DNA of 64,000 bases from Talinum fruticosum. Lineage: Eukaryota; Streptophyta; Magnoliopsida; Caryophyllales; Talinaceae. Below are positions 3,802 to 62,810 of this stretch, piece after piece (positions within the stretch are counted from its first letter, which is position 1; each line of letters begins with the position of its first letter). The notes beneath the pieces are model-generated. The model was given only the letters and a program-made list of their open reading frames with translations. It was not told the origin of the DNA and did not search any database. The translations under genes were made by a program, and so were the position numbers. The stretch lies in contig JAITYX010000042.1 in assembly GCA_021018815.1 (NCBI GenBank), forward strand, positions 3,917,501 through 3,981,500, given 5' to 3'.

Positions 3802-4040
3802 ATGGCCGGAACTGCTCCCCCAAGAGGAAGTGCAGCAGCAGCTGCCAGCCTTAGGAGGAGGAGGACCACCAGTGGGGAGCCAGCTGGAGGGGCTTCCGGG
3901 ACTATGCTCCAGTTTTACACAGATGATGCACCCGGTTTGAAGATCTCCCGAATGTTGTTCTCATGATGAGCATCGGGTTTATTGCCTTTGTTGCCTTGCT
4001 TCATGTTGTGGGTAAGCTTTGGTTAGTCCGAAAGGATTGA
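3802..4040 (+). CDS. SEC61B: Protein transport protein Sec61 subunit beta (frame broken by one missing base)
   Basis: Sec61 beta is the small tail-anchored subunit of the ER translocon, which passes nascent proteins into the ER. The start ATG follows the 5'-UTR intron acceptor. The product has an Ala-rich start (MAGTAPPRGSAAAAA), an Arg cluster (LRRRRTT), the conserved MLQFYTDDAPGLKISP-type segment, and one C-terminal membrane span (MSIGFIAFVALLHVVGKL) ending VRKD. As given, translation leaves frame in the C-run at 3947-3949 and stops at 3964. One extra base there restores 79 residues, close to the usual ~82, through the TGA at 4038. Everything on both sides of the break is highly conserved, so I read it as a real gene with a sequence error or a very recent mutation. 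No introns within the CDS. Confidence 0.9.
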
Positions 4041-4830
4041 AGCGGCCTTGACAATGGCGATACAGAGTGTTTTGGGTTCAGAAGTTTAGACAGTTTTTCA
4101 CTTCAATTTTTGTATGTTTCTTTGATAACCTGTGGATCCATCTTGCTGTTTTAGTTGTACTGAGCAGAGATATTAGCATTAACCTTTTCAAATTCATAAT
4201 TCTGGTTTATTTCTTTATTCGCATCCAAAGAAATCATAGAGCTTACTTATGTTCGTATTCGCTTCGTTTGGATCTCCCAACTCTTAGCTTAATTAGTTGG
4301 CAAATCTATTGTCAGGGCAACAAGGTTTATCATTTTTCAATGTCTCACCATCTCTGTCTTAGTCTCTCTCTCTCCCTTTTTCTTTCGTTTTTTTGTGTGA
4401 TTTTTATGTTTGGGGAGCACTGATTTGGAGTAATTTTGGCGATCAAAAAGCAGTAAAGAGTGGTCTCATCTACAATAAAATTAAACGTTTGTTAAAAAAT
4501 GGCAACAAAAACGTAACACTTAACAATGAGATCTTAGATACATCGATATATCTTAGATACATCGATATAAAACATAACATTAACATCGAGATCTTAGATA
4601 CATTGATATCTAAAACTTTCGAATAACCATTAACACACTAAAAGATACATACTTTTAATTTCTTTTCTTCGCAATATTTGAATTTTACAAACATAAAATA
4701 CTCTAGTTGTGGTGAATTACAATGCCATCAAACATCTACATCTGGCACACTTGAGCGTGTGCATTTGAATTTAGGCCTGAAAAATGCTTGGGGCCTTGCA
4801 AAGTTTAGTAGTGGCATCTCTCCCCTTCTC

Positions 4831-4832
<2 letters not shown>
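4041..4832 (+). other. Sec61 beta 3' UTR and downstream spacer
   Basis: Non-coding. The 118-codon frame at 4067-4423 is T-rich, lacks any family resemblance and lies in the expected 3' UTR. After about 4440 the sequence is AT-rich and includes the short tandem repeats listed separately. No other gene seen. Confidence 0.5.
4531..4609. repeat. 19-bp tandem repeat, two exact units plus a diverged third
   Basis: The unit ATCTTAGATACATCGATAT occurs back to back at 4531-4549 and 4550-4568, and again with one change (ATTGATAT) starting near 4591. No known function. Confidence 0.85.

Positions 4833-4834
<2 letters not shown>

Positions 4835-4868
<34 letters not shown>
4835..4868. repeat. (TA)n microsatellite
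   Basis: About 17 TA units immediately upstream of the first recognisable LINE coding sequence. Confidence 0.95.
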
Positions 4869-59960: not shown

Positions 59961-59971
59961 ACTTCAAAGGT

Positions 59972-60014
59972 CACGTGCACTGCACGCGATAGGTTCCAAT
60001 TCCGCATTATATAG
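59972..60014 (+). promoter_or_regulatory. G-box and TATA box of the fibrillin gene
   Basis: A palindromic CACGTG (59972-59977) lies about 30 bp upstream of ATTATATAGA (60006-60015), which in turn is about 75 bp upstream of the ATG. The order and spacing fit a core promoter with a G-box, the site bound by bHLH/bZIP factors in many light-regulated plastid-protein genes. Regulation is inference. Confidence 0.5.
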
Positions 60015-60087
60015 ACAAGTATCAACCGCAATTTCTAACGGCCATATCATCTCTTCCCCCTTTCTCTCTCCTCTCCCTCTCTCTCCC

Positions 60088-62810
60088 ATGGCCACCACAC
60101 TACTCCACTTTCCCGCCAATTATCACCCTCGTTCTCCCCTCAAACCCTTAATCTCAATTAAACACAACCCACTCTCTAATCCCTCAATTCCCCCAAAATC
60201 CCTCGCTTTTCTCTCTCCTCATCCCAATCTCTCTTCGCCAAAACCCACCTCCTGAACCTCATCGCCGACCAAGAGCGCGGCCTCAAAACCCAGACAAACC
60301 CTACAATCCGATCTCAAATTATCGAGGCGATCGATGCCCTTGCTGATATGGGCAGCGATTTAGTCACGACGGGCCCTTCGCTTTCTGGAACTTGGAGAAT
60401 GCTGTGGACTACGGAGAAAGAACAGCTTTACATCATCAAAAATGCCAATTGGTTCGGTACCCAGGTTGGGGATGTTCTGCAAGTAATCGATGTCGAAAAT
60501 CTTAAGCTGAACAACGTAATTACATTCCCCCATCTGGTGTTTTCTTCGTTCGATCGAGCATAGAGATTGCTTCCAATCAGAGAGTGAATTTTAGGTAATT
60601 TTGTGTATTCCCTATTTAGGGTTTAACTAATCGGATGTTTGTAATACCCACATTTCTCATGTTTTGGTTAGCGAGCATATTGCTAATTGGCCTCTTTGTG
60701 GGCAGAAATAGAAAGTCTTGCAAAGGTAAGACTGCCGTACCCCGGCAAGAGGGACCCATAATGGGAGTTGTTGAGTTGTACTGCCAACTAGTAACTACTA
60801 GTATGCCCATGTCAATTACTACTAGTTTTCCAATCATATTTTCAAGTTCTTGTGGTTTTGGACTAATAGGTTTACAAGTGCGGTGCTGCGAGGGAAGGAT
60901 TGGGAAGTCCCCCTTCCGCCATTTGGGCAAGGCTGGTGAGTATGATTTCAGACTTTGCTCAAAATTTTTTAATTGTTCATGGAGTACATTGCTGGTATAT
61001 GTTTTATGACAGTATTATTGTGGCGATTTCATCTTGAAAAGATCAACGCGGAATTTTGGTTCTTTGTTGGTTATAGTAATAAGTACATCCACGTCCTTTT
61101 TGAGCTGGGTGTTAGAGATGTTGATTTCAGTTATCTAAGCTGCTATGTTCATCTTCAGAGCTAAGTAATGCATCTCGTTGCCCCCAAATATGGAATTGCC
61201 TTTTTGATTAAAATATATTCAATTACCTCTGCCCATTGTAGTTGGTTCAATTCCTATAGATACTCACTTCTTCTGCTGGTAGTGAACTTCCCGATTCAGC
61301 CGTTTGAATCTCGGTAAATGGGGCTCAAGCGCTCATGCCTATGGTTTGAAGCAAGCGTTATCCTTGAATTATGGTCGATTTGGAAAGGTCCATATGTATG
61401 ATAATCAGTGACTTTTTTGGTCTACAAAGGATGGCAATGCGCTAATGTTCTCTGTTATCTGAGAAAATTTCACGAAGATTCTTTTTCTTAAGTTCTGATT
61501 CTGATGTGCTTTCTCATTTATGGCTCTTTTCCGGTAGTCTAGATGCCTATGTCATCATCTTTGGCACCCATTCTGCAGTGACTGGTTTTGATCGGTAATT
61601 ATCTTCTTTAATATTATGAATACTACCCATTTGGAGTATAGAGATGTGTTTTTCTGCATACCTGTCTCTCCCCAAAACCTTTCTTGGAGAGACATAAAAA
61701 CAATAATGGGTGCTCTTGGTCAATTTAGGTCTAAATTGGCCATTATTATCAGTTATTACATTCAAAGGCCATGTATCTCACATCTATCTATCACAGGTTC
61801 TTAAACTAGAAGCCAATGTCTGCTTTTACCTCCCTCTGTTTATTTTCCTTTCCTCTTTTATTCTTACCATCACCTGCCTTCTCTCTTTTCTCAATCTCTT
61901 TCATCTGTTTATTCCAAATTAGTGGTGTCAAAAGTGAAGATTGTCCCATGATTGCAATTCACTGTAGTTTTATGCAGTATCAAATACGTGTATTCCTTCA
62001 TGGTGGGTTGTGTATCATGTTGGGGTGAGAGTGTGAGACATATGAAGATATCCTTTATGTGCATTCCTTTCTATCTACCAACTACAATATATTCCCCAGA
62101 GCATGGGCCATCGATGTGGGGCAGCTCTTCCAGAAAAAGGATAGAGAAATTGGTAACTAGTAGGCTGGTAACTCTCTCACCCTAGTTTACTTAAGCTAGT
62201 CATAGTTCACCGTTAATTTTGCACGAATGTTACCTCCAAATTCTATGCGGGCAAGCAATGCTTGTAGGGTAAGGCTGCCTACATCTAGATCTCCTTAAAC
62301 CCCGCTTAAGTGGGACCCCCAGTGGGAGCTGTTGTTGATACCTCTAAATTCTGCTGCAAGCTCTGAAGCATTTCAAATATCCTTCTAGGAGACGCCACAG
62401 GTATTTTAGTAGACGAGTGTTGTGATGCTTAGTAGGAGAGTGTTGTTCTCATAAACATGGACGGATTTGTTCATTCTCCAACCTGAAAATATCTCGAGAT
62501 CTTTTTGATATTTTATTATGCTATGATGAAAACAAGACGAGTCACGTGTGTTATAAGTATCAGAAATCTATAGTGTGCATTTACATTTTCTTTTCCAGTT
62601 TTGGATTGCTTATCTCTGCAGAAGATTTCTCATAGCTTTTCAAAGTCCTTCCTCTAGCACCTAAATTATGCACTTCTAATATGTAAATGGTTGTGCCAAA
62701 ATGTTTCCAGGTTTGAATCTGTTTATTTGGACGATGACATTCGCGTTGCCAAGGACATTCGTGGAGATTATTTAGTGGTTGATCGTGCTCCTTATGAATG
62801 GAAAGATTGA
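60088..62810 (+). CDS. Plastid-lipid-associated protein / fibrillin (PAP11/FBN9-like), frame broken by missing bases
   Basis: Exons 60088-60594, 60870-60935 and 62711-62810. Fibrillins are plastid lipid-binding lipocalin-like proteins of plastoglobules and thylakoids. The Ser/Pro-rich N-terminus fits a transit peptide. The mature part shows the PAP_fibrillin pattern: LLNLIADQERGLKTQ, LSGTWRMLWTTEKEQLYIIK, GDVLQVIDVENLKLNNVITF, SAVLRGKDWEVPLPPFGQGW, RVAKDIRGDYLVVDRAPYEW. The wording resembles Arabidopsis At4g00030. Two single bases appear missing: one in the transit peptide (about 60190-60200, C5/A4 run) and one in the C5 run 60527-60531. Without the second, exon 1 stops at 60560. With both restored the gene gives 224 residues and all phases agree. 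Intron 2 (1.8 kb) carries SINE-like remnants. Confidence 0.85.
60713..60775. mobile_element. SINE-like 3' tail remnant
   Basis: AAGGTAAGACTGCCGTACCC followed by GGGACCC...GGGAGTTGTTG resembles the 3' region of common plant SINEs (GGTAAGGCTGCGTACAT ... ACCCCGC ... GGGAGC). Lies in fibrillin intron 1. Only the tail is recognisable. Confidence 0.35.
62240..62340. mobile_element. SINE-like 3' region
   Basis: GCAAGCAATGCTTGTAGGG then TAAGGCTGCCTACATCTAGA, ACCCCGCTTAAGTGGGACCC and GGGAGCTGTTGTTG follow the order of the plant TS/Au-type SINE 3' region. In fibrillin intron 2. The tRNA-like 5' half was not recognised. Confidence 0.45.

What the first reader, a model, noticed from the sequence alone, without database searches (positions are those of the whole stretch)
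3947..60531. Recurrent single-base losses break four conserved genes, mostly in homopolymers
Sec61 beta (3947-3949), the NOT1 homologue (14134-14138, about 14838, 14889-14892, 18755-18758, about 32480, 35802-35806), the PPR gene (about 43380, 44542-44547, about 44742, probably one before 42895) and fibrillin (about 60195, 60527-60531) all leave frame. Every case is the loss, never the gain, of one base, and most are in C, A, T or G runs. In the NOT1 homologue, adding exactly one base per break makes each exon length agree with the phases of its neighbours. Remorin and RHIP1-like genes are unbroken. Independent decay of unrelated housekeeping genes by one-base losses only is unlikely; homopolymer undercalling in an unpolished long-read consensus is the simplest reading. 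Anyone using gene models here would wrongly call these pseudogenes.
Basis: partly seen in the sequence, partly recalled or inferred. Interest (0 to 1): 0.75.

Follow-up and report, generated by a model that had tools for sequence, protein, structure and literature searches.

The report
Missing-base assembly errors fake broken genes
Several ordinary plant genes look broken in this stretch, but the breaks are single missing bases, mostly beside runs of the same letter, that recur elsewhere in the same genome assembly, so they are almost certainly errors in the assembled sequence and not gene decay.

Summary
All 13 listed breaks are net losses of one base; four more lie in the NOT1-like gene, giving 17. 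Seventeen further losses were found outside the window: 4 in the genome's canonical NOT1 (C100), 2 in an At1g06710-like PPR gene (C5), 1 in a second Sec61 beta (C132), 10 in duplicated genes near the window or on C100. The MEE40-like PPR gene and fibrillin 9 showed no second copy, and plant NOT1 loss is lethal, so such breaks cannot be inherited. Of 33 placed losses, 28 lie beside a run of 4 or more (25% of coding positions do). Against: one flanking gene (ZAT on C100) shows three net one-base gains away from long runs, and eleven other PPR genes, a sample biased to intact ones, are unbroken. One correction: the window's NOT1 is not the conserved gene but a fast-evolving duplication copy with a real 2.4-kb deletion through its TTP-binding domain and an early stop, on top of ten one-base losses. 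Best reading: ordinary long-read consensus artefact; the platform cannot be told from here.

The parts
3802..4040 (+). Sec61 beta coding exon; frame leaves once (-1) at 3947-3949 in a C run
   Evidence: Pfam PF03911 on the read-through protein
9570..11172 (+). Remorin gene, four exons, unbroken (negative control inside the window)
   Evidence: 1,209 nt, one terminal stop; Pfam PF03763
11460..37325 (-). NOT1 homoeolog (NOT1p): diverged duplication copy of the canonical NOT1 on contig C100; ten -1 breaks
35802..35806 (-). NOT1p break, -1, A run
32476..32480 (-). NOT1p break, -1, not in a long run
31255..31310 (-). Junction of a real deletion of about 2.4 kb (relative to C100) that removes most of the TTP-binding domain; leaves a 56-nt remnant between a donor and an acceptor-like site
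   Evidence: Pfam PF16417 cut at profile position 68 of 189
22712..22716 (-).
22674..22678 (-).
   Evidence: P0001 and P0003; P0004 shows a stop there instead
18825..18841 (-).
18755..18758 (-). NOT1p break, -1, G run
   Evidence: P0001, P0003 as F-1; P0004 as F+2, also net -1
14889..14892 (-). NOT1p break, -1, T run
14834..14838 (-). NOT1p break, -1, beside an A run
14134..14138 (-). NOT1p break, -1, T run
12717..12720 (-).
11496..11529 (-). NOT1p tail: in-frame TGA at 11529 and, behind it, the only +1 shift seen in the window
42835..45127 (+). MEE40/At3g53700-like PPR gene, the only ortholog found in the genome; three firm -1 breaks (43377-43381, 44542-44547, 44737-44747) and one probable before 42895; no in-frame stop
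52260..55059 (+). First four exons of the RHIP1-like gene, unbroken
60088..62810 (+). Fibrillin 9 / plastid-lipid-associated protein 11 gene, the only copy found in the genome; two -1 breaks (about 60193-60201 and 60527-60531); no in-frame stop

Best explanation
The one-base breaks are errors of the assembled consensus: the length of short homopolymers (mostly 4 to 6 as read) was called one too short. They were found in coding sequence on four of the fifteen contigs looked at (C42, C100, C5, C132; on the other eleven one gene each was looked at and was unbroken), so gene models made from this assembly will split or truncate intact genes. Shown: the strong excess of losses, the homopolymer association, the recurrence on four contigs, and that essential or single-copy genes are hit without nonsense changes. 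Inferred: that raw reads are the source and polishing missed them; the platform is not determined. Separately and really, the window's NOT1 is a duplication copy that evolves fast and has lost about 2.4 kb through its TTP-binding domain.
For: Canonical NOT1 on C100: 2,346 codons, 91% identical to a relative, no stop, 4 breaks, all -1; loss of NOT1 is lethal in plants (PMC8009681, passage seen); the genome search showed copies on C100 and C42 only (20 of 83 candidates scored). MEE40-like gene: identity falls from 61% to at most 43% for any other match (59 of 846 candidates scored). FBN9: all four matches lie in the window gene (8 of 8 candidates scored). At1g06710-like PPR on C5: 977 codons, 72% identity, no stop, 2 breaks, both -1 in T runs. 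Second Sec61 beta on C132: one -1, at another C run. Duplicated flanking genes: ten -1 breaks (SEC16-like C42 one; ZAT C42 four and C100 one, F-box C42 one and C100 two, MDH C42 one). All 17 residues around each of 14 losses in NOT1 or NOT1p are plain codons in the other copy. Homopolymers: 28 of 33 aligner-placed losses within 8 bases of a run of 4 or more, against 25.2% of 16,650 coding positions, 0 of 20,000 resamplings as extreme (earlier subsets). Detector control: planted losses found with the right sign 23/25 and 57/60, planted gains 25/25 and 56/60. NOT1p has 1 stop in 2,084 aligned codons where about 102 are expected had it been neutral since the duplication, so ten old frameshifts do not fit.
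Against: No reads, cDNA or second assembly could be examined. The ZAT gene on C100 gives four F+1 calls, one cancelled by an F+2 31 bases on, so three net +1 shifts (gain of one or loss of two), at runs of only 2 to 4; losses are therefore not exclusive outside the window. Eleven PPR genes (ten on other contigs, one on C42) showed no break in 315-771 aligned codons per alignment; they came from the top of a ranking that favours long unbroken matches, I leaned to longer frames, and their references are only 25-35% identical, below what the detector was tested on. The window may be denser than the rest. NOT1p has real lesions, so a few of its ten losses could be real. The SEC16-like copy on C42 also gave one F+2, one F-2 and one in-frame stop in weakly aligned stretches. 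One of the two C100 F-box losses lies in a low-complexity stretch and is called as F+2.
Confidence: 0.94

Rival explanations
1. Real decay: the window is a fractionating duplicated block whose genes are turning into pseudogenes by one-base deletions.
For: The window is one side of a duplicated block (colinear genes on C42 and C100); the NOT1 copy there is diverged and carries a 2.4-kb exonic deletion; the ZAT copy on C100 shows gains as well.
Against: MEE40-like and FBN9 showed no other copy; the conserved NOT1 on the other side is broken in the same way; no in-frame stops in MEE40, FBN9, Sec61 beta or canonical NOT1; strong excess of losses at homopolymers; a PPR gene on C5, outside the block, is hit too.
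Confidence: 0.03
2. Mixed case: a few copies, NOT1p and perhaps ZAT on C100, are truly dying, and some of their shifts are real while those in the other genes are errors.
For: NOT1p: 2.4-kb deletion that puts the regular splice out of frame, early stop and +1 in the tail, 578 of 1,903 sites changed where the C100 copy keeps the relative's residue, against 55 of 1,380 the other way. ZAT on C100: three net +1 shifts away from long runs and an insertion of about 70 bases.
Against: NOT1p: one stop in 2,084 codons against about 102 expected if neutral throughout; differences still fall mostly on third positions behind the deletion (248, 206, 417); its break density (ten in about 6.6 kb) is close to that of the other window genes (seven in about 4.9 kb). 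ZAT on C100 has no in-frame stop in 460 codons.
Confidence: 0.2
3. Programmed frameshifting or RNA editing restores the frames.
For: None found.
Against: Breaks lie at different places in duplicate copies, are in unrelated genes and share no site beyond a homopolymer.
Confidence: 0.005

Closest known systems
Homopolymer-length errors in long-read-only assemblies that break reading frames (e.g. Drechmeria coniospora nanopore assemblies, PMC7500977; plant nanopore review PMC7501810)
   Same: Small indels, mostly in homopolymers, break conserved genes and are repaired by short-read polishing (passages seen).
   Different: Here losses dominate; the fungal paper reports that its polishing step added more insertions than deletions. 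Platform here unknown.
Plant NOT1 / CNOT1 scaffold of the CCR4-NOT complex
   Same: NOT1p keeps the exon order of canonical NOT1 outside the deletion and about 66% of the residues of P0001.
   Different: NOT1p lacks most of the TTP-binding domain and evolves several times faster; the canonical gene is on C100.
Fractionated whole-genome-duplication blocks of plants
   Same: Colinear gene pairs on C42 and C100.
   Different: Nothing unusual noted; that the block stems from a whole-genome and not a segmental duplication is inferred.

Membership tests
Long-read consensus (homopolymer under-calling) artefact | One-base indels with a strong sign bias towards loss | tested here: met
   34 losses (17 in the window, 17 outside) against three net +1 shifts, all three in ZAT on C100; detector finds planted gains as well as losses
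Long-read consensus (homopolymer under-calling) artefact | Sites at homopolymers | tested here: met
   28 of 33 placed losses beside a run of 4 or more against 25.2% of coding positions
Long-read consensus (homopolymer under-calling) artefact | Hits genes that cannot be lost | tested here: met
   canonical NOT1, single-copy MEE40-like and FBN9
Long-read consensus (homopolymer under-calling) artefact | Spread over the assembly | tested here: inconclusive
   breaks on C42, C100, C5 and C132; one gene each on eleven other contigs unbroken, ten of them a biased sample
Long-read consensus (homopolymer under-calling) artefact | Independent accurate reads or cDNA disagree with the consensus | not testable with these tools
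   no reads or transcripts of this plant held
Pseudogene (real decay) | Nonsense changes accompany frameshifts | tested here: not met
   no stops in MEE40, FBN9, Sec61 beta, canonical NOT1; one in the NOT1p tail, one in a weak stretch of SEC16-like C42
Pseudogene (real decay) | Relaxed constraint on the coding sequence | tested here: inconclusive
   canonical NOT1 strongly constrained; NOT1p relaxed but not neutral, pairwise dN/dS 0.27; other broken genes not tested
Canonical plant NOT1 (CNOT1) | Complete set of domains including PF16417 TTP-binding | tested here: not met
   NOT1p: PF16417 only profile positions 14-68 of 189, below the curated cut-off; the 120 listed of 459 homologs all carry PF16417

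The most novel reading that the evidence does not exclude
The window's NOT1 copy is still a working gene: a sub-functional NOT1 that has shed most of its TTP-binding domain after a duplication. The 56-nt remnant intron is too short to splice well, and skipping the exon before it joins two phase-0 exons in frame, which would explain why the part behind the deletion still shows coding constraint and no stops before the tail.
Probability: 0.2. Interest if true: 0.4.

Novelty: not a real feature. Interest (0 to 1): 0.12.

Why it matters
Anyone annotating this assembly would call intact, essential genes pseudogenes, or read gene loss into a duplicated block. The nine genes aligned to a protein or read through over all or most of their length (three Sec61 beta, remorin, first exons of RHIP1-like, MEE40, FBN9, C100 NOT1, C5 PPR) give 14 breaks in about 15 kb; with the eleven unbroken PPR genes added it is 14 in about 35 kb. 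Either way a sizeable share of genes would carry a false break, so gene-loss, dN/dS and orthology work on it needs corrected sequence first.

Tried and rejected
Local-hotspot reading: I first took the eleven unbroken PPR genes as a sign that the window is a hotspot. A gene picked by a protein of a relative and not by rank (C5) was broken twice, so ranking bias explains at least part of it; a hotspot is not excluded. A paper search for the plant's genome led nowhere; best protein hits point to Caryophyllales. A search for published plant indel spectra gave nothing usable, so I give no probability against natural indel ratios.

Loss-only reading outside the window: a first pass over joins of at most 45 bases between the duplicate copies gave 7 losses and no gain in one copy only. 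On re-checking, full alignments raised the losses to ten but showed three net +1 shifts in ZAT on C100, which the 45-base limit had left out. I therefore dropped 'no gains' and lowered confidence from 0.95 to 0.94 (and raised the mixed rival from 0.15 to 0.2).

Left out of the counts: F+1, F+2, F-2 and F-1 calls that the P0003 and P0004 alignments place between exons 10 and 14 of NOT1p, mostly inside a retrotransposon, because the program looks there for the missing domain; one row with -1 in both copies (SEC16-like) and one with +1 in both (behind ZAT); the weak F+2, F-2 and stop of SEC16-like C42; an F+2 in PLAC8 C42 that falls on an X which I placed at an exon end. MDH on C100, PLAC8 on C100 and the cyclin-like gene on C42 gave no break. 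The dS of the ZAT pair did not resolve. The homopolymer spectrum of the window did not identify a platform.

Names SEC16-like, ZAT zinc finger, cytosolic malate dehydrogenase, PLAC8, cyclin-like, F-box/LRR, RHIP1-like, LINE and Copia are recalled from sequence motifs and come from no call; remorin, Sec61 beta and NOT1 domains are from Pfam, At3g53700, At1g06710 and fibrillin 9 from hit names. That plant introns are seldom shorter than about 60-70 nt is recalled.
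Full report
What the window is. The window is G000:C42:3917501-3981500 of a 620-Mb assembly in 264 contigs. The best named NOT1 hits are from Caryophyllales such as Chenopodium, Ancistrocladus, Beta and Spinacia, so it is most likely a plant of that order; its name is not known. 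It holds Sec61 beta, remorin, a NOT1 homolog on the minus strand, a PPR gene like At3g53700 (MEE40), a RHIP1-like gene and fibrillin 9.

Checking the breaks. I built exon models of the NOT1 gene by hand and read the frames of the other genes, then wrote a frameshift- and intron-aware protein-to-DNA aligner and ran it with proteins of other plants. In the NOT1 copy there are ten -1 breaks in all, four of them new. MEE40 has three firm and one probable, FBN9 two, Sec61 beta one. That makes 17. There is no in-frame stop in MEE40 (four references), in FBN9 (three references) or in Sec61 beta. The aligner finds both signs: planted losses were recovered with the right sign in 23 of 25 and 57 of 60 trials (one and three with the wrong sign, one and none missed), planted gains in 25 of 25 and 56 of 60 (four missed), at 91% and 59% protein identity.

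Outside the window. A search with a relative's NOT1 found a second, full copy on contig C100; all 29 matches lie on C100 or C42 (20 of 83 candidates scored). The C100 copy is 91% identical to the relative over 2,346 codons, has no stop, and has four breaks, all -1. Mutants lacking NOT1 are lethal in plants (PMC8009681, passage), so these four breaks can hardly be real. A PPR gene like At1g06710 on contig C5, picked by a Saponaria protein, has two breaks in 977 codons, both -1 in runs of T. A second Sec61 beta gene on C132 has one -1, at a different C run from the window gene; a third, diverged one on C57 is open.

The block around the window is duplicated. C42 from about 3,885 to 4,018 kb is colinear with C100 from about 1,330 to 1,422 kb. 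Aligning the two copies of each flanking gene to each other gives ten -1 breaks: SEC16-like C42 one, ZAT C42 four, ZAT C100 one, F-box C42 one, F-box C100 two, MDH C42 one; MDH C100, both PLAC8 copies and the cyclin-like C42 copy have none that count. In the same alignments ZAT on C100 shows four F+1 calls, one of them cancelled 31 bases on, so three net +1 shifts. A first pass limited to close joins had missed these. Together: 17 losses in the window and 17 outside, against three net gains in one gene.

Single copies. A search of the whole genome with a MEE40-like protein gives the window gene at 61% identity and no other match above 43% (the next by E-value at 34%; 59 of 846 candidates scored), the rest being other PPR genes. 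The FBN9 search gives four matches, all parts of the window gene (8 of 8 candidates scored). A real break would remove these functions altogether.

Homopolymers. With aligner-called positions, 28 of 33 losses (all but the soft MEE40 one) have a run of 4 or more within 8 bases, 13 of 16 in the window and 15 of 17 outside, against 25.2% of 16,650 coding positions; none of 20,000 resamplings reached the observed means. Earlier subsets agree: 23 of 25 and, with hand-placed positions and a narrower span, 24 of 27 against 18.9% of 9,781 positions. The four gain calls in ZAT on C100 lie by runs of 3, 2, 4 and 4, so they look different and may be real.

Results against. Besides those gains, eleven PPR genes, ten on other contigs and one on C42, had no break over 315-771 aligned codons per alignment. 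They were taken from the head of a list ranked by match quality, which favours unbroken genes, I leaned to long frames, and their references are only 25-35% identical, so they do not give the rate; but they do show that many genes are clean. Nine genes aligned or read through over all or most of their length give 14 breaks in about 15 kb; with the eleven PPR genes it is 14 in about 35 kb. The window may be denser than the rest. SEC16-like on C42 also showed a stop and two odd shifts in weak stretches.

The NOT1 copy is a separate story. At positions where seven other plant NOT1 proteins agree it has changed 229 of 1,082; done the same way, six of the others changed 15-29 of 868-882 each, and Nyssa 99 of 952. 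Against the C100 copy dS is 0.76 and dN/dS 0.27, and most amino-acid change is on its side: it differs at 578 of 1,903 sites where C100 keeps the relative's residue, the reverse is 55 of 1,380. The dS of five other pairs in the block, from partial alignments, lies between 0.60 and 1.26 (ZAT unresolved), compatible with one old duplication. A deletion of about 2.4 kb runs from the intron after exon 10 into a later exon and removes about two thirds of the TTP-binding domain. The tail has an in-frame stop at 11529 and a +1 behind it. Yet that is the only stop in 2,084 aligned codons, where about 102 would be expected under neutrality since the duplication, taking half of dS as its share, and behind the deletion differences still fall mostly on third positions. 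So it was coding until recently or still is, and ten old frameshifts are not believable; most or all are errors. Spliced normally across the deletion it is out of frame; skipping exon 10 would join phase-0 ends (exon lengths). Whether it works is open.

Verdict. The breaks are best read as an ordinary consensus artefact of the kind described for long-read-only assemblies (PMC7500977 and PMC7501810, passages seen).

Noticed in passing
11460-37325 and G000:C100:1371300-1395300: The window NOT1 is a fast-evolving homoeolog with a real 2.4-kb deletion of the TTP-binding region; the canonical gene is on C100.
   Followed up: yes
G000:C42:3884-4018 kb and G000:C100:1330-1422 kb: Colinear duplicated block; the tblastx comparison showed no colinear match for Sec61 beta, remorin, MEE40, RHIP1-like or FBN9 in the C100 stretch read.
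   Followed up: partly
G000:C100:1345600-1347250: ZAT-type zinc-finger gene with one -1 and three net +1 shifts and an insertion of about 70 bases relative to its C42 copy; the gains are not at long homopolymers.
   Followed up: partly
4874-9070: Degenerate LINE-type element ending in an A18 run, with an internal direct repeat (about 7986-8170 and 8188-8390).
   Followed up: no
24500-29000: Copia-type retrotransposon remains in an intron of the NOT1 copy, with an exact-looking tandem duplication near 27745-27877.
   Followed up: no
48373-48927 (minus strand): Open frame that reads like a piece of a LINE reverse transcriptase.
   Followed up: no
G000:C57:1680000-2100000: Tandem array of PPR genes, several copies about 26 kb apart with the same 457-residue open frame.
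   Followed up: no
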